A stretch of 64,000 nt of DNA from an uncultured Pelagibacteraceae bacterium (GCA_902579465.1 CACHGV010000002.1:62001-126000); one strand, 5' to 3'; numbered from the stretch's first letter, positions 27,279-49,887 are shown. Program-made: numbers and translations. Notes: generated from the sequence alone by a model not told the origin.

Positions 27279-28049
27279 ATGAAACTCGGTTTTATAGGAA
27301 CAGGTAAAATTACTCATTCTGTTGTCACAGGAATTTGTTCATCTAAGATTAAGTTTAATGAAATATTAGTCTCCCCAAGAAACCTAGCAACTGCTAGAAA
27401 ATTGGCCAAATATCACAAAAAGGTTAAAATAGCAAAGTCAAATGATGAAATTGTAAACTCTTGCAATTGGATATTTTTAGCAGTTACTCCAACAGTAGGT
27501 CAAAATCTTATAAAAAAACTTCAATTTAAATCTAATCAAACAGTAATAAGTTTCATATCAACTATTACATTACCACAATTAAAAAAAATGATTAAAGCTA
27601 AGGCAACAATAGTGAGAGCAATTCCTTTACCTCCAATATCTATAAAAAAAGGTCCTGTTCCAATTTTCCCTCCAAATAAAAAAATAAAAAGTTTTTTTAA
27701 CAAATTAGGTACTACAGTTGAAATCAAAAATGAGAACCTTTCAAAAAATTTCTGGTCCACATCAGGTATGATGGCCCCATTCTATGAACTTTTAAATACT
27801 ATGGCTAATTGGTTAGTAAAAAAAGGTGTGAAAAAGGAAAACGCTCAAAAATACATTACATCTTTGTTCCTTGCTTTATCGGAAGATGCAGTTGTAAATT
27901 CAAAAAAAAATCTAAAATATTTAGTAAAAGAATCCCAAACTCCCAAAGGGCTTAACGAACAAGGAGTTAACGAACTTAGAAAATTAGGTTTTTATAAATC
28001 AACTGAAAAAACTTTAAACAGTATTCTTAAAAGACTTAATAAAATATAA
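27279..28049 (+). CDS. Pyrroline-5-carboxylate reductase-like protein
   Basis: MKLGFIGTGKITHSVVTGI Rossmann start, VSPRNLATARKLA, FISTITLPQLKKMI, RAIPLPPI, GMMAPFYELLNTMANWLVKKG; substrate uncertain. Confidence 0.8.
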   Translation: MKLGFIGTGKITHSVVTGICSSKIKFNEILVSPRNLATARKLAKYHKKVKIAKSNDEIVNSCNWIFLAVTPTVGQNLIKKLQFKSNQTVISFISTITLPQLKKMIKAKATIVRAIPLPPISIKKGPVPIFPPNKKIKSFFNKLGTTVEIKNENLSKNFWSTSGMMAPFYELLNTMANWLVKKGVKKENAQKYITSLFLALSEDAVVNSKKNLKYLVKESQTPKGLNEQGVNELRKLGFYKSTEKTLNSILKRLNKI

Positions 28050-32587: not shown

Positions 32588-33778
32588 TTATCTTTGTTTT
32601 TTATCTTTGAATTTTCCACCTTTAATTTCTTTTTCAATAAAGGCACCTGATGCTTCTCCTACATCAGTTAATTCAACACTAGATGCTCCTTCATAGTTAA
32701 CTGCTTTACCACTAGCAAGTAAATCTAATGCTTTTTTTAATTCTCCTGGATAAATTTTTTCTCCTGGAGCATTTGCAACAGACATTACATTTGCTTGAAC
32801 AGTAGCTCTATCAGCTTTTCCACCAGCTTGCATTGCAAGTACAATCAAAGCTGCAGCATCATAAGACTCAGAAGTATAAGGTCCAGATGAATCGATTCCT
32901 GCTCCACCAGCTACACCTTTAAATATTGTAGCACCTTTACCCATTGATCCTGGCAAAGATCCAAATGATTTGTTAAGATCATTTCCAAATCTGTCAGTTA
33001 AAGAGTCACCAATCATTCCATCTGATAAAACAAATACGTCAAACGCACCTGAGTCCAATGAACCATCAATGATACTTCCACCAGCTTGATCTAAGTAACC
33101 TAACACAGCTAAAGCATCGCCACCTGCTGCTGCTAATGTAGCAACTTCAGCACCATAATCACCTTTACCTTCTTCGTGAGCTGTAACAACTGTTACGTTT
33201 ATTCCGTGAGCTTTAACAGCTGCAACATATACATCTGCTAAACCTTTACCGTAGTCGTTATTAGTATGTGTTACTGCAATACTTTTTACTTTTCTGTCTT
33301 TAGTAATATCTGCTAATACTTGACCACCTCTTGCATCAGATGGAGCAGTTCTAAAAAAGTATCCGTTATCTTTAAGATCAGTTAATCCTGGAGAAGTAGC
33401 TGATGGTGAAATCATAACAACACCATTCGGAACAGCAACATTAGTTGCTATTGCTCCAGTAACACCAGAACAATCGGCACCCATAATTGCTACTACACCA
33501 CCAGATATTAAACCTTCAGCAGCAGCTGTTGCAGCAGCTGAATCAACACAAGTTGAGTCTGCTCTTTCAACAGAAATTTTCTTTCCTCCAAGTAATGAGC
33601 CAGAGTCCGAAGCTTCTTTAAATGCAAGCTCTGCAGATGCAGCCATAGCTGGAGTTAGGGACTCAATAGGACCTGTAAATCCTAAAATAATACCCATTTT
33701 TATGCCATGTCCATCTGAATATGCTTTGGATGCAAAGCAAGAAACAAATACGAACATCGCTAATACTAGTTTTTTCAT
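32588..33778 (-). CDS. Branched-chain amino acid-type ABC substrate-binding protein (second system)
   Basis: Signal peptide, IKMGIILGFTGPIESLTPAMAASAELAFKEASDSGSLLGGKKISVERADSTCVDSAAATAAAEGLI; Peripla_BP_6-like. Strong SD AGAGGGAATATATG. Confidence 0.92.
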   Translation of the reverse strand: MKKLVLAMFVFVSCFASKAYSDGHGIKMGIILGFTGPIESLTPAMAASAELAFKEASDSGSLLGGKKISVERADSTCVDSAAATAAAEGLISGGVVAIMGADCSGVTGAIATNVAVPNGVVMISPSATSPGLTDLKDNGYFFRTAPSDARGGQVLADITKDRKVKSIAVTHTNNDYGKGLADVYVAAVKAHGINVTVVTAHEEGKGDYGAEVATLAAAGGDALAVLGYLDQAGGSIIDGSLDSGAFDVFVLSDGMIGDSLTDRFGNDLNKSFGSLPGSMGKGATIFKGVAGGAGIDSSGPYTSESYDAAALIVLAMQAGGKADRATVQANVMSVANAPGEKIYPGELKKALDLLASGKAVNYEGASSVELTDVGEASGAFIEKEIKGGKFKDKKQR

Positions 33779-33851: not shown

Positions 33852-34709
33852 TTATCTCATTTTTTGAGCAAAAAACACAGAAGTTATGACAATTATTCCT
33901 CCTATTACAGTTATTAAAGATGGAATCTCTCCAAAAATAAAAAAAGTGAGAATTAAACCAAATACAGGGAACAAAGCATAGAATGGTAATACCCTATCTA
34001 AAGGATAGAATTTATAAAGATAGAACATCATTAAGTGTCCTAGTAAAGAAATAATTGCTCCAGCATATAAAACTGTAAACCAACTCCCTAAACTGATATT
34101 TTTTATTGTTTGGAAAGTATTACCTTCAAATATTGCAGATAATATTATTAAAATTACAAACCCTGTAAAGCTCATTATAGTATTTGTAAACTTAACATCT
34201 AATTCTTTTAAATATCTAGAAAATACTTGGGATAGTCCGTAGAAAAAAGCCATACCACAAATAAGAAGAGACCCTATTATTTCCTCGACTACTTTTGGGT
34301 CAAAAGCAAGTATAACAACACCAAAAAAAGATATCATAATTAATATCCATTTTTTATAACTTATTTTTTCGTTTAAAAATATTGAGCTTAATATAATCCC
34401 AAAGGGAATTGAAAGTTGAGCACCAATTGTAATTGGTGCAAGTATACTTGATGCATTTATAGATAAATACAAAAACATATTCACTGCAACACCAAAACAT
34501 AATGAAAAACCAATTAAAGGAATAATATATTTTTTATCTATTATTTGAATTTTAAAAAATGGAATTAAACAAATAAAAACAACAGCCATTCTTAATGAGC
34601 CAAAAAGAATTGGTGGAATAGTGTCGTTTAATCCAAGTTTACCAGTTGGATATGCACTTCCTAATAAAAATACAACAAATAAAATAAGTAAAGTATGTTT
34701 TGCAGACAA
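33852..34709 (-). CDS. EamA/DMT-superfamily transporter
   Basis: GSAYPTGKLGLNDTIPPILFGSLRMAVVFICLIPFF plus second EamA repeat. Confidence 0.88.
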   Translation of the reverse strand: MSAKHTLLILFVVFLLGSAYPTGKLGLNDTIPPILFGSLRMAVVFICLIPFFKIQIIDKKYIIPLIGFSLCFGVAVNMFLYLSINASSILAPITIGAQLSIPFGIILSSIFLNEKISYKKWILIMISFFGVVILAFDPKVVEEIIGSLLICGMAFFYGLSQVFSRYLKELDVKFTNTIMSFTGFVILIILSAIFEGNTFQTIKNISLGSWFTVLYAGAIISLLGHLMMFYLYKFYPLDRVLPFYALFPVFGLILTFFIFGEIPSLITVIGGIIVITSVFFAQKMR

Positions 34710-34712
34710 AAA

Positions 34713-36194
34713 TTATCGTATAGAGAAAGGATCTAAAGTTGGTTCATCAGATGTGTAATACCAAGTTGTCTTAACTCTAGTATAATCTTTAATTGAGTCC
34801 ATTCCCGCTTCCTTTCCATATCCACTATCTTTAATTCCACCAAAAGGTGCTGAAGGAGAAATTAATCTATAAGTATTTACAAACGTTATACCTGCTCTTA
34901 TTGCATTAGAAACTCTTAGACCTCTCGAAAAGTCACTAGTATAAACTCCAGAAGATAATCCGTACTGATTATCGTTCATTTTCTCTATTACCTCTTTTTC
35001 TGTATCAAATTTCATAACTGATAAAACTGGTCCAAAAAGCTCATTTTCTGCGGTTGGAAGATTATGATTATCACATTCAATTATTGTAGGAGGAAAATAG
35101 TATCCCTCATTTGAAAATGGATGCCTTTCACCTCCACATTTTATTTTTCCACCCTGTTCAGTGGTTTTCTTTATGTTTTTTTCAATAATTTCTAACTGTT
35201 TATAATTACTCAAAGGTCCCATTTCTGTGTCTGGATCCATGGGAGCACCAATTTTTATTTTTTCAGCTCTTTTTGTGAGTTTATCAAGGAACTCATCGTA
35301 AATTCCTTTTTGAAGATATAGCCTTGAACCTGCAATACAACTCTGTCCGCTAGCTCCAAATATTCCTGCGGTAATTCCATTAATAGCATTTTCTTGATGA
35401 GCATCATCAAATACTGCAACAGGACTTTTTCCTCCAAGTTCTAAGCTTACTTCTGATAAATTTTCTGCAGAATTTCTAATAATATGTCTTGCAGTTTCGG
35501 GCCCTCCAGTAAAAGCAACTTTTTCAACTAAATTATGTGTAGTTAAAGCTTTTCCACATGGGTCTCCAAATCCTGTGATAACATTTACTACTCCTTTAGG
35601 AATACCTGTTTCCTCTATCAATTTTGCAAATTCAAACATTACAGCTGGTGCAAGTTCAGAAGATTTAATAACTACCGTGTTTCCCATAGCTAAAGCAGGT
35701 GCAAGTTTTGTTGCAGTTAAAAACATTTGAGAATTCCATGGAACAATCGCAGCAATAACACCAATAGGTATTCTTGAAGTTATAGCTTGAATATTTGGTT
35801 TATCTATTGGTAGAACTGTACCTTCGACCTTGTCTGCCATACCAGCATAATAATCATAGTACTCTGCAATGTAATTTGCCTGCTTATTTGTTTCTCTAAA
35901 AAGTTTTCCTGTATCTATAGTTTCAATTTTTCCAAGCAATTCTGCATTGTCTCTAAGCTTATTACCAATAGCTCTTAGAAATTTTGCTCTTTCACGCGGC
36001 AGTATTTTAGGCCAATCACCTTCAAAAGCTTTTTGAGCTGATTGAACTGCTTTATCTACATCAGAAGCACTTGCCTCAGGAACAACTGCCCATGGCCTAT
36101 TATCCTCTGGGTTTAAAGTTTCAAAAGTCTTTTTAGTATCTGAGTCAACCCATTGTCCCCCTATAAACATTTTGTATTTTTTTAATTCAGGCAT
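34713..36194 (-). CDS. Aldehyde dehydrogenase family protein
   Basis: IGVIAAIVPWNSQMFLTATKLAPALAMGNTVVIKSSE, VSLELGGKSP, FGASGQSCIAGSRLYLQ. Start at 36194 (MPELKKYKMFIGGQWVDS) preferred over 36218. Confidence 0.95.
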   Translation of the reverse strand: MPELKKYKMFIGGQWVDSDTKKTFETLNPEDNRPWAVVPEASASDVDKAVQSAQKAFEGDWPKILPRERAKFLRAIGNKLRDNAELLGKIETIDTGKLFRETNKQANYIAEYYDYYAGMADKVEGTVLPIDKPNIQAITSRIPIGVIAAIVPWNSQMFLTATKLAPALAMGNTVVIKSSELAPAVMFEFAKLIEETGIPKGVVNVITGFGDPCGKALTTHNLVEKVAFTGGPETARHIIRNSAENLSEVSLELGGKSPVAVFDDAHQENAINGITAGIFGASGQSCIAGSRLYLQKGIYDEFLDKLTKRAEKIKIGAPMDPDTEMGPLSNYKQLEIIEKNIKKTTEQGGKIKCGGERHPFSNEGYYFPPTIIECDNHNLPTAENELFGPVLSVMKFDTEKEVIEKMNDNQYGLSSGVYTSDFSRGLRVSNAIRAGITFVNTYRLISPSAPFGGIKDSGYGKEAGMDSIKDYTRVKTTWYYTSDEPTLDPFSIR

Positions 36195-36960
36195 TTTGTA
36201 TGTGATCTTTAATTGCATTATTTACATCATATGAGCATTCAATACTACATAGATGTTTACCTACAGGTATTATTTTTACTTCAGAGTTTTTAATTTTTTT
36301 ACTCAGATTATCAGACATTTCTGGAGTTGAGCCTACATCACCTTCTCCAGTCATCACAAGTGTTTTGACATTAATATTTTCAAATTTTTCGTTATCCTCG
36401 TGATTTACAAACAATGAGTATACTTTAATAAAGTTATCCATATTATTATTACTAAGAATTGAGAAAATTTTATCTGAAATTTGAGGATTTTTCTCAATAA
36501 AATCCTTATTAAACCATCTTTTGAGTGCGTCTTTTGTCAGTTTTTTATCTTTTTTTGTCTGTTCAAACCTTTCATTTACTATCTTCTGTTCATTATCAGA
36601 TCTATTAAATATTGAGCACAACAATGTTAGGGATTTCAATCTATTACTAAATCTCGTTGCAAAGTTTCTTGCAATCAAAGAGCCTATTGAAAATCCAATA
36701 AGGTGAATTTTACTAAATTTTAATTCATCAATAAGATCAATAATTTGATCTGAAAAATCATCAAAACTTATTTTTTCTTTATTTAAGGGTGTTTTACCGT
36801 GTCCAAGGATATCATAAATTAAAACTGTATTATCAAATTCATTAATTTGTGGATCCCATATATTATGATCAAGACCCACACCATGAATAAATACTATTGG
36901 AATTCCCTCTTTTTGATTTAGTTTATAGAATGTACCTTTAGAATCTGTTGCATTGATCAT
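36187..36960 (-). CDS. Alpha/beta hydrolase (3-oxoadipate enol-lactonase-like)
   Basis: IPIVFIHGVGLDHNIWDPQI, nucleophile elbow GFSIGS, DILGHGKTP, C-terminal His. Confidence 0.88.
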   Translation of the reverse strand: MINATDSKGTFYKLNQKEGIPIVFIHGVGLDHNIWDPQINEFDNTVLIYDILGHGKTPLNKEKISFDDFSDQIIDLIDELKFSKIHLIGFSIGSLIARNFATRFSNRLKSLTLLCSIFNRSDNEQKIVNERFEQTKKDKKLTKDALKRWFNKDFIEKNPQISDKIFSILSNNNMDNFIKVYSLFVNHEDNEKFENINVKTLVMTGEGDVGSTPEMSDNLSKKIKNSEVKIIPVGKHLCSIECSYDVNNAIKDHIQNA

Positions 36961-36962
36961 TA

Positions 36963-37550
36963 TTATTTTGGATCAATGCCCATCTCCTTCATATCTTGGT
37001 ATCTATCGCCTGTTCTTGCATGAGCTCTACCTGTCGAAGCTCCTCCAATTGCAATAACAATTTCATCATCAAATGGAGCATCATGAATTGTAAACTCATG
37101 TGTAAGATAATATGGTCTTAAACCAGAGTCGGTTTTGTGCATCATTGGAATAGATATTTTTGATCCAGCCGGACCTCTTGTATTCGTAAAACTTAAATAA
37201 GAAGTTCCTCCAACAGCATCTCTGAACTTATTTCCAAATCTTAATGTATGAATGAATGCTGATGCATGTTCTATTTCTCCATTCAATCCAACTACACCTG
37301 CTTTCCCGTACGCTAATATTTTATCAGGAGAGCCTATTTCTTTTATAAGTTCAGGAACTAATAAATCTCCAAGTTTAGGAGCTAGGTCTAAAATAATGGG
37401 TTTTAAGTCTTCCACAAAACCTTTTCCATCCCAAGGATCTTTAAAAACTGCAGCAACAGAAACCATCAAAACTGGTTCTTTAGCTTCTTTTCCACCTTCA
37501 ATAAAAGTCTTGTCTACAAATTTAGTAAACTTACGTAATTCTAATTTCAT
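36963..37550 (-). CDS. PF06684 (DUF1185, 'amino acid synthesis') family protein
   Basis: KEPVLMVSVAAVFKDPW, LLVPELIKEIG, YGKAGVVGLNGEIEHASAFIHTLRFGNKFRDAVGGTSYLSFTNTRGPAG, IAIGGASTGRAHARTGDRYQD. Confidence 0.85.
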   Translation of the reverse strand: MKLELRKFTKFVDKTFIEGGKEAKEPVLMVSVAAVFKDPWDGKGFVEDLKPIILDLAPKLGDLLVPELIKEIGSPDKILAYGKAGVVGLNGEIEHASAFIHTLRFGNKFRDAVGGTSYLSFTNTRGPAGSKISIPMMHKTDSGLRPYYLTHEFTIHDAPFDDEIVIAIGGASTGRAHARTGDRYQDMKEMGIDPK

Positions 37551-39247
37551 TTTTTAATTCTATGTGTAAAGCTATCTCTTCTAAAACTGTATAACGCTTT
37601 TGGATCTACATCAACATCTATAACAACTGGTTTATTTACTTTTAATGCACTTTTTACTGCCTCATTAACTTCTGATAATTTTTTAACTTTAATTCCTTTA
37701 GCACCATATAGTTTAGCAACTTCATCAAAAGGAGGACTTTGAATATCAGCTCCTAAATATCTTTCACCATAAAAATCTTTTTGATAAGCTTTTTCTGCTC
37801 CCCAACTCTTATTATTCATCACTATTGTAATGGTGTTTATGCCATGTTCTACAGCTGTACTTAGTTCTGAAATAGTCATTCCGAAACCACCATCACCCAT
37901 TAAACTAACGACAGTTTTATTAGGTTTTGCAACCTTTATGCCTAAGCCACATGCAAATGAGAAGCCTACTAGACCAAAATCAAGGGGAGTGAAAAGAGCA
38001 GGTGGATTGTAATATTCTAAAGCATCTGTTGCTTGAAGGCAGAGTGTGCCAGCATCGAGTGTTATTGCAGTATTTTTCGGTAGTACTTTTCTTAATTCTT
38101 TGAATAGACCTTTTGGTTGGATTGGAAAATTTTTTGACTTTATATTATCTCTATTTTTAAGAAATTTTGATCTCTCTAACAAATAACTATTTGTCCACTC
38201 TTTGTAATTGAAAATTTTCTTTTGTTTTCTTAATTCAACTAAAATTTGATCTGTCACCAGAGCAGCATCCCCATGAATACCTACATTAACTGGAAAGTAT
38301 CTTCCTATCATTGTTTTTTCTAATTCAATTTGTACAATTTTCGCGTTTTTATTTATATTGTCATACGAATAGAAAGTGGAATTGAAACCAAGTCTTGTAC
38401 CAATTGCAATAATTAGCTCTGCTTCTTTGACTAATCTTGATGCAACAATATTTCCTCTAGGCCCCATTTGTCCTGCATTTAACTTATGACTGAATGGAAT
38501 CGCATCTCCATGTCCTGCTGCAGTTACAATTGGAATATTTAAAAATTCAGCAAGCTTTGTTACAGACTTAAATTTTGAATTATATTTTATTCCTCCTCCA
38601 GCAACAATCACAGTTTTTTTTGAGTTGAGAATAAGTTTTACAGTTCTGTCAATTGAATTCTTTTTACTTTTTAAGTCACTTTCGGTTTTATAGGATTTTT
38701 TATTTTCATTAATCTTAAACTTTGCAGTATCAGAAAGAACATTTCTTGGAAGATTTATACAAACTGGTCCTCTTCTAGGCGACATTGCAAGATTAAATGC
38801 ATCTCTAAAAGCCATTGGTATATGACTTGCCTTTTTTACTGTCCAAGTTTTTTTTGTTATAGGATCAAAAAGCGATTGTTGATCAAGTCCTTGAAAGGCA
38901 TCTTCCATCTTGTCTTTAGTAGAATATAAACCTGCAATAGATACCACAGGAGAAAATGCTGCTTTTGCTTGCGCTATGCCTGTAACGAGATTAGTTGCTC
39001 CGGGACCGTTTTGACCAGCAATTATTACACCTGGTTGATTAGAAGCTCGTGCATATCCATCTGCCATATGCGTTCCAGTTCTTTCGTCTCTTACACCGAT
39101 AAATTTAATTTTTTTTTCATGATATAACGCATCAAACATTTCCATTGTAGCTGAACCAATTAAACCAAAGACATGTTTAACTTTTTCTTTTTTTAGAGAT
39201 TTCACTGCCGCTTGACCACCGGTCAAGGTATTCTTGGACTTAATCAC
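37547..39247 (-). CDS. Thiamine diphosphate-dependent enzyme, acetolactate synthase-like
   Basis: KHVFGLIGSATMEMFDALY, DERTGTHMADGYARASNQPGVIIAGQNGPGATNLVTGIAQA, LMGDGGFGMTISELSTAVEHGINTITIVMNNKSWG. Confidence 0.9.
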   Translation of the reverse strand: MIKSKNTLTGGQAAVKSLKKEKVKHVFGLIGSATMEMFDALYHEKKIKFIGVRDERTGTHMADGYARASNQPGVIIAGQNGPGATNLVTGIAQAKAAFSPVVSIAGLYSTKDKMEDAFQGLDQQSLFDPITKKTWTVKKASHIPMAFRDAFNLAMSPRRGPVCINLPRNVLSDTAKFKINENKKSYKTESDLKSKKNSIDRTVKLILNSKKTVIVAGGGIKYNSKFKSVTKLAEFLNIPIVTAAGHGDAIPFSHKLNAGQMGPRGNIVASRLVKEAELIIAIGTRLGFNSTFYSYDNINKNAKIVQIELEKTMIGRYFPVNVGIHGDAALVTDQILVELRKQKKIFNYKEWTNSYLLERSKFLKNRDNIKSKNFPIQPKGLFKELRKVLPKNTAITLDAGTLCLQATDALEYYNPPALFTPLDFGLVGFSFACGLGIKVAKPNKTVVSLMGDGGFGMTISELSTAVEHGINTITIVMNNKSWGAEKAYQKDFYGERYLGADIQSPPFDEVAKLYGAKGIKVKKLSEVNEAVKSALKVNKPVVIDVDVDPKALYSFRRDSFTHRIKK

Positions 39248-40413
39248 GATACTTTTTTAACTTCAGTATCTAGATCATCTTTAAAGTTAGGCATTACTTT
39301 TTCAGTGAATAGTTTAATACTTTTCATGCAATCTTCATGTTTAACACCCGGAAAGTTAGACCAGACTTGAAGATTTTGAAGATTAAGCTCTGATTGAAGT
39401 TCTTTAATCTTATCTGTTACATATTCAGGAGTACCAAATAACATATTTCGCTTATGTAAAAACTCGTAATTAAGAAGATCTAATTTACCCTTTGTTTCTG
39501 GAAGTTCTTCACCGGGATCCATATGATTACCAAGACCTCTCCAATGACAAACCCATTTCATATAATTTACCATATGTTGTCCTGCTTTTTCTTTAGCCTC
39601 TTCCATAGTATCAGCAACAAACATATCTCTAACGAGAGTAACACCTTCACCTAAAGGAACATTTTTTTTAGTAACTTCCGATCTTTTATTTTTGTAAGCT
39701 TCAAATCTTATTTTCAATGCTTTAACTGTAGGTATCCACATAATTACATTTATGTTATTTTCTGCAGCCCACTCTATAGATCTTATACCATCAACAACTT
39801 GATGTATTGGAGGGTGTGGATTTTGATAAGGTTTTGGAAGAACACTAATTTTTTTCATTGTGTTATCTTCCATATTCATAAATTCTTCACTTGGCGGGCT
39901 CATGTCATGCTGCCAAACATAATTTGGTGAAGGGTAAGTATAAAATTCTCCATCATGATTAAAAAATTTTTCTGACCATGCTTTTTTCAAAATTTCTAAT
40001 GTTTCAGCAAATAATCTAAAATTTTTTGCCTGATCTTTTAAATCTGCTTCTTTGTTTAAATTAATTGCCTCTCTCCCATAAACTCCTCTAGCAACACCAA
40101 CTTCTACTCTTCCTTTTGAAAGTTGATCAAGTGTAGCAATATCTTCTGCTAATCTTATAGGATTATGAAAAGTTATTACATTTGCTGCTTGTCCTATTCT
40201 TATATTTTTTGTTCTTGCTGCAGCATCTGCTCCTAGCATTAGGGGATTGGTACACGACTCCATTCCTTCATGGTTAAAATGGTGTTCAGTAAACCAAATT
40301 GAATTCCAATTGTTTTGATCACAATATTCGGTGATCTGTTTAGTTTCATCTAATAATTTATGATACGGTTTGTGTGTCCAATTTGTAGTATTACAAAAAT
40401 AACCAAACTTCAT
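39244..40413 (-). CDS. LLM-class flavin-dependent oxidoreductase
   Basis: WFTEHHFNHEG, LDQLSKGRVEVGVARGVYGREA. Start at 40413 (MKFGYFCNTTNW) has a strong SD AAAGGAGGCT; listed ORF start at 40455 is probably too early. Confidence 0.92.
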   Translation of the reverse strand: MKFGYFCNTTNWTHKPYHKLLDETKQITEYCDQNNWNSIWFTEHHFNHEGMESCTNPLMLGADAAARTKNIRIGQAANVITFHNPIRLAEDIATLDQLSKGRVEVGVARGVYGREAINLNKEADLKDQAKNFRLFAETLEILKKAWSEKFFNHDGEFYTYPSPNYVWQHDMSPPSEEFMNMEDNTMKKISVLPKPYQNPHPPIHQVVDGIRSIEWAAENNINVIMWIPTVKALKIRFEAYKNKRSEVTKKNVPLGEGVTLVRDMFVADTMEEAKEKAGQHMVNYMKWVCHWRGLGNHMDPGEELPETKGKLDLLNYEFLHKRNMLFGTPEYVTDKIKELQSELNLQNLQVWSNFPGVKHEDCMKSIKLFTEKVMPNFKDDLDTEVKKVS

Positions 40414-40513
40414 TAAGCCTCCTTTAAAAATTAATTTAAAGACGACCGATCCCACTTTCGTATATGATTTTACGACGAGTTATGTATCGCTTTATGTAAT
40501 AATATTATTATTC

Positions 40514-41485
40514 TTACCTTTGATATTCAACGAATTTTTTAAGGGATTTATTAAGAAATTTATCATATCTGATACCACTTTTTGCTAATTTCTTATTATT
40601 AAGAAATGAAAGATTCATTTTAAAGTCATATGAGGGTTCAAAAAAGAAAGGTACTGAAAGCCTTTTTTGCTTGTTCCATAATACCCTATGATTAGTTGCT
40701 TTAAACTTGCCTTTGCTTAAATATTCTAGCGCTCTACCTGTATTCACCACCAAGGCATTTTTATTGAAAGGGACATTATACCATTTTTTTGTTTTTCGGT
40801 TTTGAACTTGCAAGCCACCTTTTTTGTTTTGATATAAAACTGTGAAAATACCACTATCAACATGCGTTTCACATCCAAGTGCTACCCCATCTTCTTTAGA
40901 TATTTCGATTGGTTTAGATTGATTAGAGTAATAATTAAATCTTAAAGTACTGAGTGTTTTAAGTCTTGAAAAAACTTTTTTAGATAAATTAGTGTCTTTT
41001 TTATAAATTTTTATAATACTTTTAAAAAGAGTTTCGCTAAGATTAAATAAATTTTCATAATAATCAGATAGTTTTTTGATAGATTGTTTGTTAAATGATT
41101 TTTCTATGCTCAAATGCTCGATGTATTGAGTTTTAGTTTTTTTGGAAAAACCCTTTGTCACTTTCAAGTCACCTAAGTCTAATCCCTCTTTTCCATTAAC
41201 ATCATTTGGAAAATATCCTCGATAAATATTTTTGTTCTTTTTATTCCATTTCTTTGGAGCTAACTTAAATTTGTTGTTTTTATTTGATTTAAAAAAATTT
41301 TCTCCAATTTTGCATACTTTATTTATTTGTTTGAATTTAATTCCATGACCAATTATTTGAAAAAAACCAACTTCGACACAGGCTTTTTCAATTTCTCTTA
41401 TTATTTTTAATGTTGCTTTTGAATTGAAGTTTTTTTTTAGAATAGGATTAATATTGATTGTTGGAATATAATTTTTTCTTATCAT
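40514..41485 (-). CDS. 2OG-Fe(II) oxygenase, isopenicillin-N-synthase-like family
   Basis: ACVEVGFFQIIGHGI, HVDSGIFTVLYQNKKGGLQV (HxD), NHRVLW, RLSVPFFFEPS. Confidence 0.9.
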   Translation of the reverse strand: MIRKNYIPTININPILKKNFNSKATLKIIREIEKACVEVGFFQIIGHGIKFKQINKVCKIGENFFKSNKNNKFKLAPKKWNKKNKNIYRGYFPNDVNGKEGLDLGDLKVTKGFSKKTKTQYIEHLSIEKSFNKQSIKKLSDYYENLFNLSETLFKSIIKIYKKDTNLSKKVFSRLKTLSTLRFNYYSNQSKPIEISKEDGVALGCETHVDSGIFTVLYQNKKGGLQVQNRKTKKWYNVPFNKNALVVNTGRALEYLSKGKFKATNHRVLWNKQKRLSVPFFFEPSYDFKMNLSFLNNKKLAKSGIRYDKFLNKSLKKFVEYQR

Positions 41486-42432
41486 CTATTTGTTGGTGTA
41501 TCTGTAGCAATCATTTGTCCTCGTACTTTTTCTCTAAAATAAATATACGCACCAGCGCCAATAATTATTGTTGCTCCAAGAAAAGTTCTTGGTACTGGAA
41601 TTGTTTCAAATAATATGTAACCAGCTACCATTGCAAACACTATGTATGAATACTCAAATAATGAAACAACCGATGGGGAGGCAATACTATAAGCAGTAAA
41701 TACACAAAAAAACGAAATCGATGCAACTATTCCCATAATTAAAACATAAGGCCAAGCCTCCCCTGGATTAGTAAACCATTCTCTCACAATAAATTGCAAA
41801 GTTGGATCTGTAAAAGTATTAAATTTTCCATCACCACTAACAAAAAATATTACCAAACTTGCAAATAATGCAAAAATATAAAGCCATGTCATTTGAGTAT
41901 AGATAGTATCTTTATTAGATGTATATTTTGTTATAGTCATCGAGATTGAATAACAAAGAGCGCATGCTACAGGTGCTAATTTAAAGAAATTAAAATCATC
42001 TAAAGATGGATTTAAAACAATCAATACACCAATAAATCCAACTACTATTGCACTCCATCTTCTAATTCCAATTTTTTCTTTTAAGAAAAATTTAGCAAAC
42101 ATAGACATAAAGAACGGGCAGGAGAAAAATAGTGCACTTGTCATAGCAAGTGTCATAAAGGTCAGTGAAATATAAAAAAAACTAAAACCAAAGAAAAAAC
42201 ATATAACTCTTATTAGTGTTAATAATGGGTAATGTGTTTTTAAAGATATTGTTTTTTTAGTTATTAAAACAAAGGATAGCAAAAATACTGATTGTATAAG
42301 GGTTCTTCCAAAATAAAGCTCGAATAAAGCAATATCCTCAAAAATAAACTTAATTAGAGAATCTTGTATTGAAAAAAAAGCCATACCAGTCATTATAAAA
42401 AAAATACCTCTGGTATTTTGGTTTGTATCCAT
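41482..42432 (-). CDS. EamA/DMT-superfamily transporter
   Basis: GMAFFSIQDSLIKFIFEDIALFELYFGRTLIQ; RRWSAIVVGFIGVLIVLNPS. Confidence 0.9.
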   Translation of the reverse strand: MDTNQNTRGIFFIMTGMAFFSIQDSLIKFIFEDIALFELYFGRTLIQSVFLLSFVLITKKTISLKTHYPLLTLIRVICFFFGFSFFYISLTFMTLAMTSALFFSCPFFMSMFAKFFLKEKIGIRRWSAIVVGFIGVLIVLNPSLDDFNFFKLAPVACALCYSISMTITKYTSNKDTIYTQMTWLYIFALFASLVIFFVSGDGKFNTFTDPTLQFIVREWFTNPGEAWPYVLIMGIVASISFFCVFTAYSIASPSVVSLFEYSYIVFAMVAGYILFETIPVPRTFLGATIIIGAGAYIYFREKVRGQMIATDTPTNR

Positions 42433-42467
42433 GAGACACCTATATCAAATCAGTAGTAATAATAATA

Positions 42468-44054
42468 TTAATTATTTAAAATTGCCTCTGAACCTTTTTC
42501 AGCAATCATTAGTGTAGGAGCATTTAGATTTGCACTTGGAATTTCAGGTATCACTGATGCATCAATTACTCTTAAATTTCCAATCCCATTTACTTTTAAA
42601 TCCTGGTCTACTACTGCCATACCATCAACTCCCATTTTACATGTTCCACAAGGATGATAAGCAGTATCTGCTTTAGATCTAACATATTCATTTAATTCAT
42701 CATCTGACTGTGCATCAAAACCTGGCCCAACTTCATCACCAGCATGCTCTGCTAAAGCTGGCTGTGATAGAATTTTTCTTGCAACATGAATGCATTCTCT
42801 TGTTTGTTTAAGATCTTCTTCTTCTTTTAAATAGTTAAATAATATTTTAGGATAATCATACGGGTCTGAGGAATTAAGTGTTATTTCACCTCTACTTTTT
42901 GGATGATTTGGACTTGCATGTAATTGGTAACCATGTGAGTCAGGATCTTCTAGGCCATGATTTATCACAAATGACGGAAAAAAATGAAATTGAATGTTAG
43001 CAACTTTTCTATCAGGCGATGATTTTGCAAAACCACCAGCCTCCAAAAATGATTTTGAGCAAGGTCCAGATTTAAACATAAACCATTGCATACCTGCTAA
43101 AATTTTAGGTATTAATTTTGTATATGTGTAAAGTGTATTAGGAGTTTTACATTTTTGCTGTATGTAAGTTTCAAGATGATCTTGTAAATTTTTTCCAACC
43201 CCCTTTGAGTGATGAATAACTCTAATACCATTATCTCTAAGATGAGTTTCGTCACCTATGCCAGATAACATTAATAATTGTGGAGAATTTATAGATCCTC
43301 CACTCAAAATTACTTCTTTATTTGCATAAATCTTTTCAACTTTGTTATTTATTTTTACTTGAAGACCAACTGCTTTTTTTCCTTCAAATAGTATCTTTTC
43401 AACAAATGAGTTTTTTAAAATATTTAAATTTTTTCTATTTTTAACAGGGTTTAAATAATACTTGGCAACTCCAGCTCTCTCACCTTGATGCATTGTTGTA
43501 TCAAACATACCAAAACCCTCTTGTTCTTCACCATTCATATCTATATTTGTTTTGTGACCTGCTTCAGCTGCAGCATCAATAAATGCTTTAAATAGTGGAT
43601 TTGAATTTTTAGATAAATTTATCGGAAGTGGACCCAATGATCCTCTGTATTGATTTTCACCTTCAGACCAAGTTTCAATCTTCTTAAAATAAGGAAGAAC
43701 TTTATCATAGGACCAATCATCCAAACCAAAGTTTTCCCATCTTGTATAGTCATCTCTATTTCCTCTTACAAAGACCATTCCATTATGAGATGAGCATCCT
43801 CCAATCATCTTTCCTCTTGGGCAAAAAACACGTCTATTGTTCAAATATGGCTCAGGTTCTGAATAATATTTCCAATTATATTTGGGATCATGCATCGTAT
43901 ATAGAAGAGCTAATGGCATTTTAACCTTCCAAATATCACTAGATCCTCCTGCCTCAAAAATAGCTACAGAATTGTTAGGATTCTCAGATAGCCTATTTGC
44001 TACTACACATCCAGCTGAACCAGCACCAACTATGAGATAATCGAAAGCTTGCAT
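42468..44054 (-). CDS. GMC-family oxidoreductase (choline dehydrogenase-like)
   Basis: FDYLIVGAGSAGCVVANRLSENP, GKMIGGCSSHNGMVFVRGNRDDYTRW, SGGSINSPQLLMLSGIG, YHPCGTCKMG. Confidence 0.93.
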   Translation of the reverse strand: MQAFDYLIVGAGSAGCVVANRLSENPNNSVAIFEAGGSSDIWKVKMPLALLYTMHDPKYNWKYYSEPEPYLNNRRVFCPRGKMIGGCSSHNGMVFVRGNRDDYTRWENFGLDDWSYDKVLPYFKKIETWSEGENQYRGSLGPLPINLSKNSNPLFKAFIDAAAEAGHKTNIDMNGEEQEGFGMFDTTMHQGERAGVAKYYLNPVKNRKNLNILKNSFVEKILFEGKKAVGLQVKINNKVEKIYANKEVILSGGSINSPQLLMLSGIGDETHLRDNGIRVIHHSKGVGKNLQDHLETYIQQKCKTPNTLYTYTKLIPKILAGMQWFMFKSGPCSKSFLEAGGFAKSSPDRKVANIQFHFFPSFVINHGLEDPDSHGYQLHASPNHPKSRGEITLNSSDPYDYPKILFNYLKEEEDLKQTRECIHVARKILSQPALAEHAGDEVGPGFDAQSDDELNEYVRSKADTAYHPCGTCKMGVDGMAVVDQDLKVNGIGNLRVIDASVIPEIPSANLNAPTLMIAEKGSEAILNN

Positions 44055-44882
44055 TTAATTTGGATTATCGCCCTCTACTGCAATCCTGTCCATAACTCTT
44101 TCATGGCCCAATCCTCTGCCAGGAAAAAAATCAGTCAGACCTTGGTGAAGGGTGCTTCTATTGTCCCAAATTGCTACAGCATTTTCAGTCCATTTAAACC
44201 TGCATGTAAAATCAAGTCTTTCTTGATGTAAAAATATTTCATTTAAAATATCTGAACTTTCATTTTCATCTAAATCTAAAATTCTTTTTGTATACATTGA
44301 ATTTACATACAAAATTTTTTTTCCTGTTTCAGGATGAGTTCTAACTACTGGATGGGAATTTGAATATTCATCTAGATTACCATTCCCTTCCATTTCCTTA
44401 TATGCTTCAACAAATGCTGCCGCACCTAAAGAACTATGAATGGCTTTTTTATCCTTAACCTTATCTTTAATTTCATCACTTAATGTGTCGTAAGCAATTT
44501 CCATATTAGAAAACATTGTATCTCCACCAACTGGAGGAACTTTAATTGATCTTAATATAATTACTTTTGTTGGTTTTGGATTATAACTTACGTCAGTATG
44601 CCAAGTTTCACCCCATTGTCTTTTTTCTTCTGGAGCTTTAATTATTCTTAGTATTTCAGGATAATCTTTTCTTCCTTTAACATAAATATGTCTTTCTAAT
44701 GGACCAAAATGTTTTGCTAAATTTATCTGTTCTTCCGATGTAATATCTTGATCTCTAAAGAATAAAGCCTTGTGTTCTAATAATAAATTATTTATTTTTT
44801 TCCAATTTTCTAAAGAACTATCTTTTAAATCGATGCCTTTTACTTCTGCTCCTAATGCACCTGATACTAATTTTATTTCCAT
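44055..44882 (-). CDS. TauD/TfdA-family 2OG-Fe(II) dioxygenase
   Basis: KALFFRDQDITSEEQINLAKHFGPLERH, WHTDVSYNPKPTKVIILRSIKVPPVGGDTMFSNMEIAYD, VAIWDNRSTLHQG. Confidence 0.93.
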   Translation of the reverse strand: MEIKLVSGALGAEVKGIDLKDSSLENWKKINNLLLEHKALFFRDQDITSEEQINLAKHFGPLERHIYVKGRKDYPEILRIIKAPEEKRQWGETWHTDVSYNPKPTKVIILRSIKVPPVGGDTMFSNMEIAYDTLSDEIKDKVKDKKAIHSSLGAAAFVEAYKEMEGNGNLDEYSNSHPVVRTHPETGKKILYVNSMYTKRILDLDENESSDILNEIFLHQERLDFTCRFKWTENAVAIWDNRSTLHQGLTDFFPGRGLGHERVMDRIAVEGDNPN

Positions 44883-44885
44883 AAT

Positions 44886-45353
44886 CTATTTTTTTAATCT
44901 ACCAGATAATTCTAAGTTTTCAGACTTAAAACTTGATTTATTTTCATTAATAAATTCACCCATTATTTTTAGCTTATCTTCCTCAAATTCTGTGACCTTT
45001 CTTTTCCCCAAGTCAATATAAAGTGATAAACTCTCCATTGTAGCAGCAAGAGTTTTAGTTTCTTTTTCATACATCTCACATTTTAAATGTAATCTTTTTT
45101 TATCATGGTCAAAATGAGTGCAATATACCTCTACTTCTTGATTTTCTTTAACCTCATTATTGTAAGTAGTTCTAGTTTCAACAACCATAGTACTTCTCAG
45201 ATTTGATTTTGCATTTTCACCACCCATTTGAAATTTATTAAGCATCGTTTCCCAGGCTTGATCAAAGATTAAGATATAATAAGCCATATTCATATGTTCA
45301 TTATAATCTGTCCACTCTTTGATAATTTTTCTTGTGGCAAGATGAAACGACAT
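44886..45353 (-). CDS. Hotdog-fold thioesterase; candidate betainyl-CoA thioesterase of carnitine degradation
   Basis: DYNEHMNMAYYILIFDQAWETML is a hotdog thioesterase pattern; location in a carnitine-type cluster supports the specific call. Confidence 0.75.
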   Translation of the reverse strand: MSFHLATRKIIKEWTDYNEHMNMAYYILIFDQAWETMLNKFQMGGENAKSNLRSTMVVETRTTYNNEVKENQEVEVYCTHFDHDKKRLHLKCEMYEKETKTLAATMESLSLYIDLGKRKVTEFEEDKLKIMGEFINENKSSFKSENLELSGRLKK

Positions 45354-45355
45354 TT

Positions 45356-46216
45356 TTAACCCTTATTAATTTTTTCAGCTATTAGTATTTTTCTTTTCAT
45401 TTCTCTAAGAACGGGTTTTTCAATTAGCTTACCATCTATAACTACTAAACCTGTATTTGAGTTATTAAATTCTTCTAATATTTTTTTTGCCTTAGTAATT
45501 TCATCTTTTGGTGGTGTAAATACCTCATTTAAAATTTGAATTTGTTTGGGATGAATTGAGCCTTTTCCAGTAAATCCTAGATTTCTTACTTGTTCAGCCT
45601 CTTTTCTCATTCCATCCATGTTTTCTAGATCTAAATAAGGCACATCTATAACGTCTACACCGACACTAGCTCCCGCATGAACCAACTTTGATCTTGCGTG
45701 AACTAGATTTTCCCATTTATTTTCAACTCTAAGCTCTGCAGCCATATCAACACCACCAAAGTATAAAGCTACTATTCTCTTGCTAGCATGAGCAATATTA
45801 TAAATATTTTCTAAAGCTTCATTTGTTTCCATAATAACATGAAGATCGGTATCTAAATTACAGTCTGTTAGTAGATCGTCTATAAATGTTATTTCATCTG
45901 GTGTTTTAACTTTTGGTAACATAATAGCCTTTAGATTTACTTTACTTGAGATAAAAGCTTCTAGATCTAAAAGACCAAATTTAGTTCTTTGATTATTAAA
46001 CCTTATAACTAGTTCTACATCATTTTTTACTTCGAGCGTTTTAAGAGCTTCTATAGTATTTTTTCGTGCTTGTTCTTTGTCATTTATTGCTATCCCATCT
46101 TCTAATTCAATACAAACCATATCAGCCCCTGATGCAATCGCTTTCGGAAACATTTCAGGGTGAAGCCCTGGTGTAAATATAAAACTTCTTCTTACTTTTA
46201 ATTTATCTAAGTCCAT
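45356..46216 (-). CDS. HpcH/HpaI aldolase / CitE-like lyase
   Basis: RRSFIFTPGLHPEMFPKAIASGADMVCIELEDGIAINDKEQAR, FTGKGSIHPKQIQILNEVFTP. Confidence 0.92.
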   Translation of the reverse strand: MDLDKLKVRRSFIFTPGLHPEMFPKAIASGADMVCIELEDGIAINDKEQARKNTIEALKTLEVKNDVELVIRFNNQRTKFGLLDLEAFISSKVNLKAIMLPKVKTPDEITFIDDLLTDCNLDTDLHVIMETNEALENIYNIAHASKRIVALYFGGVDMAAELRVENKWENLVHARSKLVHAGASVGVDVIDVPYLDLENMDGMRKEAEQVRNLGFTGKGSIHPKQIQILNEVFTPPKDEITKAKKILEEFNNSNTGLVVIDGKLIEKPVLREMKRKILIAEKINKG

Positions 46217-46217
46217 C

Positions 46218-46943
46218 TTAATTTTTATAATCTGGCTCTTCTTTATCTAAAATAATCCTAATTTGAGATAAAAATAAATTTGCAAAATCTGTGGGAAAAT
46301 TTTCATGCTCTCCTGCAGTTTTTTCTGCAATTTCATGGCTCACAACATTAAGTTCCTGGTTTGTTGATAAAGCTGTAAGATACGTCTCTGCTGCTCTCTC
46401 AAAATAATAAAGAGAGTTAAAACCTTCAGCCACGGTTCTTCCTGTGGTTAAAATTCCATGATTTGCAAGCAACATGTGTTGTTTGTTTCCTAAAGCATTT
46501 GCCATCTTAATGGACTCTTCTTCTAGTCCTAGACCTCCAAATTCTTTGAATGCAGATACTCTATTGTAAAACATCATTGTATTTTGATCGATAGGTTTCA
46601 TAACAGGATCTTTAAGAGTGGAGAGGGCAGTTGCATATTTTGAGTGAACATGAAAAATGCATCTTGCATGTGGTGCTTTTTCATGTATCGCGCTATGTAT
46701 ATATAGAGCTGTTGGATCAATTATGTCTGGTTTATTCTTTAGTTCTTCCTTATTTTCTTTTGTTACCAAGATTAAATCACTTGCCTTCATATTACTAAAA
46801 TGAATGCCTGCCTTATTTACATAAAAATCAGATGAGTTAGGGACGCATGCACTAAAATGGTTTGCAACACCCTCGTGCATATTTAGTCTTGCTGTCCATC
46901 TAAAAGTAGCAGCTAATTCTTTCTGTAATTCAGATATTTCCAT
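46218..46943 (-). CDS. Class II aldolase/adducin family protein
   Basis: HIHSAIHEKAPHARCIFHVHSKYATALS metal-binding region; LLANHGILTTGRTVAEGFNSLYYFERAAETYL. Confidence 0.92.
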   Translation of the reverse strand: MEISELQKELAATFRWTARLNMHEGVANHFSACVPNSSDFYVNKAGIHFSNMKASDLILVTKENKEELKNKPDIIDPTALYIHSAIHEKAPHARCIFHVHSKYATALSTLKDPVMKPIDQNTMMFYNRVSAFKEFGGLGLEEESIKMANALGNKQHMLLANHGILTTGRTVAEGFNSLYYFERAAETYLTALSTNQELNVVSHEIAEKTAGEHENFPTDFANLFLSQIRIILDKEEPDYKN

Positions 46944-46978
46944 TTATATGATTTTAAAATATAGTTGAAAAATAAATT

Positions 46979-47866
46979 ATGAACAATAACGTTTTTATCT
47001 CATGCGCGGTTACTGGGTCTGGAGATACCGCAAGCAAACATCCTGATTTACCAAAAACTCCAGAGCAAATAGCTAAATCAGCAATAGAGGCAGCAAAAGC
47101 AGGTGCTGCAATTGCTCATATTCATGTAAGAGAAGAAGACGGAACGCCAAGCAGAAGACTAGAATTATATAAAGAAGTAGTAGATAGAATTAGGTCAAGT
47201 GAAACAGATGTTATTTTAAATTTAACAACTGGGATGGGTGGAGATTTAGACATTGGTCAAGGTAAAAATCCTCTAGAATTCGGTCCAATGACTGATATGG
47301 CAAATGTAATGGAAAGAATAGCTAATGCAGAACAATTTTTACCTGAAATTTGTACTTTAGATGCCGGTACATTAAATTTTGGAGATGGTTCTGTAATTAC
47401 AGTTAATACACCAAATGATTTAAGAAAGGCTGCAAAAAAATTACAAGAGATTAAAGTTAAGCCAGAAATAGAGGCATTTGATTTAGGAAATATGTGGTTT
47501 GGATCGCAATTGTACAAAGAAGGCTTACTTGATGATCCACCAATGTTTCAAATGTGTTTAGGTATTCCTTGGGGAGCTCCCGCTACCCCATTAGCAATGC
47601 AAGCCATGAAAGACATAATGCCTAAAGAAGGAGTGTGGTCAGGTTTTGCAATTTCAAAAAACGAAATGCCATTTGTAGCTCAAACAGTTGTAATGGGAGG
47701 AAACCCAAGAGTAGGTTTGGAGGATAACTTATATTTATCAAAGGGCAAACTAGCAACAAATGCTCAATTAGTAGAGAAAGCAATAAGGATAGTTACAGAT
47801 CTTGGAGCATCAATAATGACAGCAGAGGAAACTAGGACAAAACTTAAGCTTGTTAAACACAAGTAA
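46979..47866 (+). CDS. BKACE (DUF849) family; likely 3-dehydrocarnitine:acetyl-CoA cleavage enzyme
   Basis: FISCAVTGSGDTASKHPDLPKTPEQIAKSAIEAAKAGAAIAHIHVRE, LNLTTGMGGDLDIG, EICTLDAGTLNFGDG, FQMCLGIPWGAPATP, GGNPRVGLEDNLYLSKGKLATN; followed directly by carnitine dehydrogenase. Confidence 0.9.
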   Translation: MNNNVFISCAVTGSGDTASKHPDLPKTPEQIAKSAIEAAKAGAAIAHIHVREEDGTPSRRLELYKEVVDRIRSSETDVILNLTTGMGGDLDIGQGKNPLEFGPMTDMANVMERIANAEQFLPEICTLDAGTLNFGDGSVITVNTPNDLRKAAKKLQEIKVKPEIEAFDLGNMWFGSQLYKEGLLDDPPMFQMCLGIPWGAPATPLAMQAMKDIMPKEGVWSGFAISKNEMPFVAQTVVMGGNPRVGLEDNLYLSKGKLATNAQLVEKAIRIVTDLGASIMTAEETRTKLKLVKHK

Positions 47867-48810
47867 TGTTAAAAATTAAAAAAGTTGCTGTAGTTGGAAC
47901 AGGTGTAATCGGAATAGGGTGGATTATAAGATTTTTAGCTCATAATAAAATCGTTTATGCTTACGACAAAAATCTTAAGCAAAAAAAAATTTTGATTAAC
48001 GAAATAAAAAGAGCACTTCCATATGTAAAAAAACTTTTTAACAAAAAAAAAATAAATTTAAATAATTTAAAATTTTATCTATCTTTAGAAGAAGCAGTTA
48101 AAGATGCTGATTTTATTCAAGAATGTGCACCAGAAAATTATAATTTAAAAACTGTTTTAATGAGGGAAATTTCTAAAAGTTGCAAAAAAAATGTTTTAAT
48201 TTCATCAAGTTCTTCAGGATTGTTGCCATCAAAGATTTTTTCAAAATGTAAAAATATTCAGAGAGGTATTATTGGCCATCCATTCAATCCTGTATATTTG
48301 TTACCTTTGGTAGAAATAGTTCCTGGTAAAAAAACTAGTGAGAAATCTTTAAAAGTTGCGAATAAATTTTATAAGTCAATTTCAATGAATCCGATAGTTC
48401 TAAAAAAAGAATTACCTGGTTATTTATCTGATAGACTTCAAGAAGCCTTATGGAGAGAGGCGTTACATATTATTAATAATGGATATGCTACAACTGAGGA
48501 TTTAGATAGAGCCATAGAGGATGGTCCCGGTTTAAGATATTCTTTAATGGGAACATTTTTAACCTTCCATTTAGCGGGTGGAAAGGCTGGGATGAAGCAT
48601 ATGTTAGAACAGTTTGGGCCAGCATTAAAACTTCCATGGACCAAGCTTAAAGCGCCAAAATTATCAAAAAAACTCTCAGAAAGGTTGATTTCAGGTACCA
48701 AAAAACAATCTAGAGGAAAATCAATTAATCAACTGTCAAATATAAGAGACGAGTATTTAGTCAATTTACAACTATTTAGAAAAAAATATGAAAATAAAAT
48801 TAGAAAATAG
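47866..48810 (+). CDS. L-carnitine 3-dehydrogenase (3-hydroxyacyl-CoA dehydrogenase family)
   Basis: VAVVGTGVIGIGWIIRFLAHN, IIGHPFNPVYLLPLVEIVPGKKTS, DRLQEALWREALHIINNGYATTEDLDRAIEDGPGLRYSLMGTFLTFHLAGGKAGMKHMLEQFGPAL, the carnitine-dehydrogenase-type C-terminus. Confidence 0.88.
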   Translation: MLKIKKVAVVGTGVIGIGWIIRFLAHNKIVYAYDKNLKQKKILINEIKRALPYVKKLFNKKKINLNNLKFYLSLEEAVKDADFIQECAPENYNLKTVLMREISKSCKKNVLISSSSSGLLPSKIFSKCKNIQRGIIGHPFNPVYLLPLVEIVPGKKTSEKSLKVANKFYKSISMNPIVLKKELPGYLSDRLQEALWREALHIINNGYATTEDLDRAIEDGPGLRYSLMGTFLTFHLAGGKAGMKHMLEQFGPALKLPWTKLKAPKLSKKLSERLISGTKKQSRGKSINQLSNIRDEYLVNLQLFRKKYENKIRK

Positions 48811-48846
48811 ATATCTTAAGAAAAATTAAAATGGTAAATTAAACAC

Positions 48847-49881: not shown

Positions 49882-49887
49882 ATATCT

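What the first reader, a model, noticed from the sequence alone, without database searches (positions are those of the whole stretch)
33852..40413. Tight six-gene catabolic operon of unknown substrate: LLM oxidoreductase - ThDP enzyme - PF06684 - alpha/beta hydrolase - ALDH - DMT transporter
Seen: all on the minus strand, ends overlapping or within 3 bp, led by a strong SD (AAAGGAGGCT) before the LLM gene at 40413. Established: LLM flavoenzymes open or oxidise small molecules (e.g. RutA in pyrimidine degradation, whose pathway also uses an alpha/beta hydrolase). PF06684/DUF1185 has, to my knowledge, a chorismate-mutase-like fold and no firm function. Inference: a Rut-like logic of flavin oxygenation, hydrolysis, aldehyde oxidation and ThDP-dependent C-C chemistry on an N-heterocycle or related dissolved organic compound. 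This is the best candidate for an undescribed pathway in the window.
Basis: partly seen in the sequence, partly recalled or inferred. Interest (0 to 1): 0.66.

Follow-up and report, generated by a model that had tools for sequence, protein, structure and literature searches.

The report
SAR11 trigonelline-like ring-opening catabolic operon
About a third of the SAR11 genomes searched (SAR11 dominates ocean surface bacterioplankton) carry this compact gene set, which resembles the known trigonelline pathway but uses a different ring-opening oxygenase, so it probably lets them eat a plankton-made pyridine compound such as homarine or trigonelline.

Summary
The six-gene operon is real, tightly packed and widely co-conserved. 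The window is SAR11 (Pelagibacteraceae). 100 of 298 SAR11-order genomes carry exactly one copy of its LLM gene. The conserved core is LLM, PF06684, alpha/beta hydrolase and aldehyde dehydrogenase. The ThDP gene follows one LLM subtype in 55 of 55 loci and the other in 0 of 28. The DMT gene is optional. A branched-chain-type ABC transporter is often adjacent.

PF06684 and the aldehyde dehydrogenase group with trigonelline (tgn) operons: PF06684-hydrolase-flavin reductase-LLM-ALDH. PF06684 is reported in the literature as TgnF. The LLM, however, lies outside the TgnB clade (23-29% identity), and no flavin reductase is linked.

Best reading: FMN-dependent opening of a pyridine-type betaine (homarine or trigonelline, not resolved), aldehyde oxidation and deformylation. 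In half the lineage an Xsc-like ThDP enzyme adds a step. A 2026 homarine-catabolism paper that I could not read may already cover this operon.

The parts
39244..40413 (-). LLM-class FMN monooxygenase, proposed ring-opening oxygenase; type A of a SAR11 clade distinct from TgnB
   Evidence: Pfam PF00296; tree; one copy in each of 100/298 SAR11-order genomes
37547..39247 (-). ThDP enzyme, Xsc-like (sulfoacetaldehyde acetyltransferase superfamily), subtype-specific part
   Evidence: NCBIfam Xsc models best or tied but below cut-off; tree and motif; adjacent in 55/55 type A, 0/28 type B
36963..37550 (-). PF06684 (AA_synth/DUF1185) protein, TgnF-like
   Evidence: 213 bits; 55-58% to tgn-operon copies; tree
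36187..36960 (-). alpha/beta hydrolase with Ser-Asp-His triad, proposed TgnD-like deformylase
   Evidence: alignment; tree
34713..36188 (-). aldehyde dehydrogenase, sister clade to TgnC
   Evidence: 532.8 bits; 49-52% to tgn-operon ALDH; tree
33852..34709 (-). EamA/DMT-family transporter, optional component
   Evidence: absent from many relatives
32588..33778 (-). Peripla_BP_6 substrate-binding protein of a branched-chain-type ABC importer, likely uptake of the substrate (inferred)
   Evidence: conserved next to the operon in many type A and type B loci and in L023
28064..31923 (+). divergent ABC importer: two ATPases and two permeases
   Evidence: conserved order in five closed SAR11 genomes
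27279..28049 (+). P5CR-like imine reductase at the head of the ABC operon; may be the cell's ordinary ProC rather than part of the pathway
   Evidence: NF005063 323 bits; conserved place in all SAR11-genus loci with room and five closed genomes; only ProC-like hit in G818
40414..40425 (-). Shine-Dalgarno AAAGGAGGCT before the LLM start
   Evidence: sequence

Best explanation
A SAR11 version of the trigonelline-type ring-opening pathway. A pyridine-type betaine or carboxylate (homarine or trigonelline are the likeliest) is imported, perhaps by the adjacent branched-chain-type ABC system. The LLM enzyme, fed with reduced FMN by an unlinked reductase, cleaves the ring next to nitrogen to give an N-formyl enamine carrying an aldehyde. 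The TgnC-like dehydrogenase oxidises the aldehyde to an acid. The alpha/beta hydrolase removes the formyl group, releasing formate, a methylated amine or amino acid, and a C4-C5 acid or semialdehyde. PF06684 supports the aldehyde steps as TgnF is reported to do. In type A genomes an Xsc-like ThDP enzyme processes a further aldehyde or 2-oxo acid. Shown: gene content, order, co-conservation, subtype linkage and phylogenetic placement. Inferred: every reaction and the substrate.
For: The nearest plasmid-borne relatives of PF06684 (56-60%) sit in tgn-type operons PF06684-hydrolase-flavin reductase-LLM-ALDH, one annotated tgnA/tgnB/tgnC. The ALDH groups as sister to the TgnC clade with 99% support, away from gabD, betB and puuC. 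PF06684 groups with tgn copies and far from other PF06684 at 100/100. The same LLM lineage is found with PF06684, hydrolase, TgnC-like ALDH, flavin reductase and a Rieske oxygenase in an unrelated alphaproteobacterium, L060. The core order is kept in SAR11: ALDH and hydrolase in 48/48 and 21/21 loci. Trigonelline and homarine have been measured in marine particles, homarine at high levels (PMC8269262).
Against: The LLM is only 23-29% identical to TgnB and lies in a different LLM clade, so the substrate may not be trigonelline or even a pyridine. The hydrolase does not fall inside the TgnD clade. No PF01613 flavin reductase occurs in any of 37 genomes of the SAR11 genus. No regulator of the tgn type is linked. 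No biochemical data exist here.
Confidence: 0.58

Rival explanations
1. It is the already published homarine catabolism operon (homABCDER) as found in SAR11: ring opening at C5-C6 of N-methylpicolinate, oxidation, deformylation to an N-methyl imine of 2-oxoglutarate, reduction to N-methylglutamate, then N-methylglutamate dehydrogenase (Mgd). This is a sub-case of the best explanation.
For: [quoted passage not shown] From memory its preprint named SAR11 among carriers. Mgd/Sox-alpha-type genes occur in SAR11 genomes. A P5CR-like imine reductase is conserved at the head of the adjacent transporter operon. TgnA/TgnB was judged unlikely to act on homarine for steric reasons (PMC8269262), which fits a different oxygenase here.
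Against: The paper is not held, so gene content was not compared. Sox/Mgd-alpha genes occur in all 61 SAR11-order genomes tested, with or without the operon. The P5CR-like gene may be the only ProC of the cell.
Confidence: 0.4
2. It is a trigonelline operon in which the oxygenase has been replaced by an unrelated LLM, with the same intermediates as the known tgn pathway. This is also a sub-case of the best explanation.
For: TgnC-like ALDH and TgnF-like PF06684. In L060 and L061 the same LLM lineage sits with an ALDH (62-63% to tgn copies) that is even closer to tgn.
Against: Oxygenase identity normally sets the ring position attacked; LLM and hydrolase have both diverged. Trigonelline is much rarer than homarine in seawater particles (PMC8269262).
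Confidence: 0.25
3. A Rut-like pathway on a pyrimidine, hydantoin or similar N-heterocycle.
For: LLM, hydrolase and aldehyde-handling enzymes occur together.
Against: LLM far from RutA; RutD lacks the nucleophile Ser that this hydrolase has; no RutB/C/E/F/G equivalents in the operon; the partners PF06684 and ALDH group with tgn.
Confidence: 0.05
4. The two subtypes use different substrates, and the ThDP enzyme marks a second, distinct pathway in type A.
For: ThDP 55/55 in type A, 0/28 in type B; the hydrolase diverges most between the types (median 64% against 49% to the window).
Against: The LLMs differ by only 13 fixed positions, many of them conservative, PF06684 is equally conserved in both types, and the SBP does not separate cleanly by type. 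No genome has both, which fits alternative versions of one function.
Confidence: 0.25

Closest known systems
Trigonelline degradation (tgn) operon of Acinetobacter and rhizobia (Perchat et al. 2018, cited in PMC7913881 and PMC8269262)
   Same: PF06684, alpha/beta hydrolase, LLM monooxygenase and TgnC-type aldehyde dehydrogenase in one operon; ALDH and PF06684 fall next to the tgn clades
   Different: LLM from another clade, no linked flavin reductase, hydrolase outside the TgnD clade, branched-chain-type ABC transporter instead of cytosine permease or another ABC type, extra Xsc-like ThDP enzyme in type A
Homarine catabolism operon homABCDER (Ferrer-Gonzalez et al. 2026, doi 10.1038/s41564-026-02313-7; operon name from memory)
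   Same: Marine pyridinium betaine, expected ring opening and deformylation; may be the same operon
   Different: Could not be compared; paper not held
Sulfoacetaldehyde acetyltransferase (Xsc)
   Same: ThDP fold, catalytic Glu, WGAEKxYQxDFYxxR motif, groups with Xsc away from IlvI and Gcl
   Different: About 29-32% identity, 385 bits against the Xsc cut-off of 676; a closed type A genome also encodes a separate canonical Xsc
Rut pyrimidine pathway
   Same: LLM plus alpha/beta hydrolase logic
   Different: No orthologues; different LLM clade and different hydrolase active site

Membership tests
tgn trigonelline operon | PF06684 protein of the TgnF type | tested here: met
   55-58% identity, tree 100/100 with tgn, Agrobacterium and SAR11 clades against other PF06684
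tgn trigonelline operon | TgnC-type aldehyde dehydrogenase | tested here: met
   49-52% identity, sister clade at 99%
tgn trigonelline operon | TgnB-type LLM oxygenase | tested here: not met
   23-29% identity; TgnB groups with the Agrobacterium-type LLM, the window LLM with another clade
tgn trigonelline operon | TgnA-type flavin reductase in the operon | tested here: not met
   none in the operon; no PF01613 in 37/37 genomes of the genus
tgn trigonelline operon | TgnD-type alpha/beta hydrolase | tested here: inconclusive
   20-31% identity, same triad, not inside the TgnD clade
tgn trigonelline operon | growth on or turnover of trigonelline | not testable with these tools
   needs culture or enzyme assay
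homABCDER homarine operon | orthology to the published hom genes | not testable with these tools
   paper and sequences not held
Rut pathway | RutA orthologue | tested here: not met
   RutA and SsuD form a separate outgroup at 99%
Rut pathway | RutD orthologue | tested here: not met
   RutD on a very long branch and lacks the nucleophile Ser
Xsc | score above the curated Xsc cut-off | tested here: not met
   TIGR03457 385.1 bits against 676.4
Xsc | Xsc-like catalytic motifs and clade | tested here: met
   alignment and tree
PF06684 family | match above gathering score | tested here: met
   213 bits, cut-off 27

The most novel reading that the evidence does not exclude
SAR11 has its own ring-opening oxygenase lineage for an abundant plankton pyridinium betaine, and in half of its carriers an Xsc-like ThDP enzyme diverts the ring-opening product into an acyl phosphate or a shortened aldehyde, a step not known from trigonelline degradation.
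Probability: 0.22. Interest if true: 0.75.

Novelty: new variant of a known kind. Interest (0 to 1): 0.5.

Why it matters
SAR11 dominates surface-ocean bacterioplankton. A pathway present in about a third of its genomes would tie it to the turnover of homarine or trigonelline, nitrogen-containing plankton betaines whose consumers were until recently unknown. Several closed SAR11 genomes carry it. By exact length one matches HTCC1062 (1,308,759 bp, type B) and another may be HTCC7211 (1,456,888 bp, type A); both matches are from memory. If so, the question can be tested directly in culture. The strict ThDP/LLM linkage gives a clean natural contrast for working out what the ThDP enzyme does.

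Tried and rejected
Rut-like assignment: rejected by LLM tree and hydrolase active site. Use of Mgd/sarcosine-oxidase genes as a marker for homarine: useless, all 61 SAR11-order genomes have them. PNPOx-like gene upstream of the LLM in L024 as a flavin reductase: rejected, it matches a pyridoxamine phosphate oxidase, and its 168-aa neighbour has no Pfam hit and begins like a signal peptide. P5CR-like gene as a proven pathway enzyme: not accepted, no second ProC was found in a closed genome, so it may be housekeeping; the one weak second hit looks by eye like a 3-hydroxyisobutyrate dehydrogenase. Unlinked flavin reductase: only weak PF03358 candidates and one nitroreductase in one of five genomes. 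AlphaFold model of the LLM: mean pLDDT 62, too poor for a fold search. Phage collection: nothing relevant. Phylum-wide sample: no other carrier at E<=1e-60 among 399 genomes. Literature: PF06684 and DUF1185 searches gave 2-3 papers; papers on trigonelline (PNAS 2018), homarine (Nat Microbiol 2026) and SAR11 binding proteins (Nature 2024) are not held. Searches in whole-genome collections outside alphaproteobacteria were limited by caps.

Full report
OBSERVATION. The six genes exist as described, with Pfam support for each. Junctions are -4, -4, +2, -2 and +3 bp, and a strong Shine-Dalgarno precedes the LLM start. A substrate-binding protein gene follows 73 bp downstream on the same strand. Beyond it lies a divergent operon of a P5CR-like gene and a branched-chain-type ABC importer.

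WHERE IT IS. The genome is a 1.11 Mb bin in 27 contigs, 79% complete. Of the 80 best genome matches of the LLM, nearly all are labelled Pelagibacteraceae or Pelagibacterales, i.e. SAR11. In a sample of 298 SAR11-order genomes at least 80% complete, 100 carry the LLM, always as one copy. It is rare elsewhere: 20 of 385 alphaproteobacterial genomes give any match at 1e-30, and only a few exceed 40% identity; no other genome in 399 of the phylum matches at 1e-60.

CO-CONSERVATION. In SAR11 loci the LLM is followed by PF06684, hydrolase and ALDH. Where there is room, hydrolase and ALDH occur in 48/48 and 21/21 loci of the two LLM subtypes, and PF06684 in 50/52 and 24/24. The ThDP gene is strictly linked to subtype: 55/55 of type A (LLM at least 82% to the window), 0/28 of type B (70-82%). 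In another SAR11-order family ThDP is present in L023-L025 and absent in L027. The two LLM types differ at only 13 fixed positions, while the hydrolase diverges most. The DMT gene is optional. The SBP and ABC operon adjoin many, not all, loci of both types. Five closed genomes keep P5CR-ABC-SBP next to the operon. One has the length I remember for HTCC1062 (1,308,759 bp, type B) and one of 1,456,888 bp (type A) may be HTCC7211; names are from memory, not from a tool.

RELATION TO KNOWN PATHWAYS. The closest plasmid-borne PF06684 genes (56-60%) lie, where annotated, in operons PF06684-hydrolase-flavin reductase-LLM-ALDH in Sinorhizobium, Rhizobium, Shinella, Leisingera and Chimaeribacter. The same operon on an Acinetobacter plasmid is annotated tgnA/tgnB/tgnC (trigonelline monooxygenase reductase, oxygenase, and (Z)-2-((N-methylformamido)methylene)-5-hydroxybutyrolactone dehydrogenase), next to folate-, formate- and sarcosine-oxidase-type genes. 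A paper identifies the PF06684 protein as homologous to TgnF, reported to stimulate TgnE-dependent succinic semialdehyde oxidation (PMC7913881). Trees place the window ALDH as sister to the TgnC clade (99%), separate from gabD, betB, puuC and the cell's own other ALDHs. They place the PF06684 with the tgn, Agrobacterium-type and L060 copies, far from copies in nicotinate-type and other contexts. The LLM is different: TgnB groups with the Agrobacterium-type LLM, whereas the window LLM belongs with LLMs of L060-L063 and, more distantly, Peribacillus and others. The hydrolase keeps the Ser-Asp-His triad but is outside the TgnD clade.

BRIDGING CASE. In G271 (locus L060), from outside the SAR11 order, the operon reads Rieske oxygenase - flavin reductase (40% to the Sinorhizobium one) - LLM (53% to the window) - PF06684 (63%) - hydrolase - ALDH (62% to Sinorhizobium TgnC). 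This shows that the SAR11-type LLM belongs in a tgn-like enzyme set and that a flavin reductase is part of it outside SAR11.

THE ThDP ENZYME. It scores best or nearly best with sulfoacetaldehyde acetyltransferase models, well below cut-off. It groups with Xsc and with a Ruegeria pomeroyi megaplasmid ThDP enzyme (40%) that sits with an MttB-type methyltransferase, a class III aminotransferase and two FAD oxidoreductases. It has the catalytic Glu and the WGAEKxYQxDFYxxR motif and lacks the RFDDR segment seen in IlvI. A closed type A genome has separate canonical Xsc and acetolactate synthase genes. The likely role is chemistry on an aldehyde or 2-oxo acid downstream of ring opening; this is inference.

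MECHANISM. By analogy with the trigonelline pathway (steps from my own knowledge of Perchat et al. 2018, which is not held): LLM with FMNH2 and O2 cleaves the ring beside nitrogen to an N-formyl enamine aldehyde; ALDH oxidises the aldehyde; the hydrolase removes formate; the remainder falls apart to methylamine and a C4-C5 acid, or is reduced to N-methylglutamate. For homarine the same logic would give the N-methyl imine of 2-oxoglutarate. Heal et al. judged TgnA/TgnB unlikely to act on homarine for steric reasons and found homarine far more abundant than trigonelline (PMC8269262; its homarine concentrations were later corrected downwards, PMC10134881). A different oxygenase in a marine lineage therefore slightly favours homarine. 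A 2026 paper reports a conserved homarine pathway with Mgd involvement (cited in PMC13390433). I recall, without being able to check, that its operon is called homABCDER and that SAR11 is named among carriers. If so, this operon may be that one.

LIMITS. No reductase is linked, and PF01613 is absent from all 37 genomes of the SAR11 genus tested, although most genomes of the sister family have one; weak PF03358 candidates exist. The P5CR-like gene may be the ordinary ProC. The structure model was too poor to use. Substrate and reactions are untested.

VERDICT. A real, widespread SAR11 catabolic module, a new variant of the trigonelline-type ring-opening pathway with a different oxygenase and a subtype-linked Xsc-like enzyme. 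Substrate probably a pyridinium betaine; possibly already described as homarine catabolism.

Noticed in passing
46979-50658: A second cassette in the window, BKACE - carnitine-dehydrogenase-like - second LLM (48847-49881) - second alpha/beta hydrolase (49888-50658), resembles operons of Parasedimentitalea and Aminobacter plasmids (L192, L195) that hold TgnC-like ALDH, LLM, BKACE, dehydrogenase, RidA, hydrolase and PF06684.
   Followed up: partly
L080:2799-8588; L079:977-8576; L078:1107-8603: An uncharacterised tgn-like operon type: flavin reductase - ALDH - LLM - hydrolase - carboxymuconolactone decarboxylase - (NIPSNAP) - PF06684, near a ProXWV transporter in Agrobacterium.
   Followed up: partly
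L192:4523-6646: A protein annotated CoA transferase (about 707 aa) carries a stretch of about 310 aa matching tgn-type flavin reductases (49% to the Aminobacter one), apparently a fusion.
   Followed up: no
L081:3035-9668: Two tandem PF06684 genes with 6-hydroxynicotinate reductase, UPF0280, molybdenum hydroxylase and Rieske genes and an ABC importer in Pseudosulfitobacter: PF06684 seems tied to pyridine catabolism more broadly.
   Followed up: no
L172:1351-10671: Ruegeria pomeroyi megaplasmid operon MttB-type methyltransferase - class III aminotransferase - two FAD oxidoreductases - Xsc-like ThDP enzyme, conserved in Ruegeria sp. THAF33; looks like an undescribed methylated-amine route.
   Followed up: no
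G000 and 36 relatives of the SAR11 genus: No PF01613 flavin reductase in any of 37 genomes of the window's genus, although most genomes of the sister family have one; the source of reduced FMN for these LLM enzymes is unknown.
   Followed up: partly
40514-54598: Upstream of the operon lies a run of oxygenase, GMC, thioesterase, ProU-type and gamma-butyrobetaine-dioxygenase-like genes that by eye suggest carnitine or other quaternary-amine catabolism.
   Followed up: no
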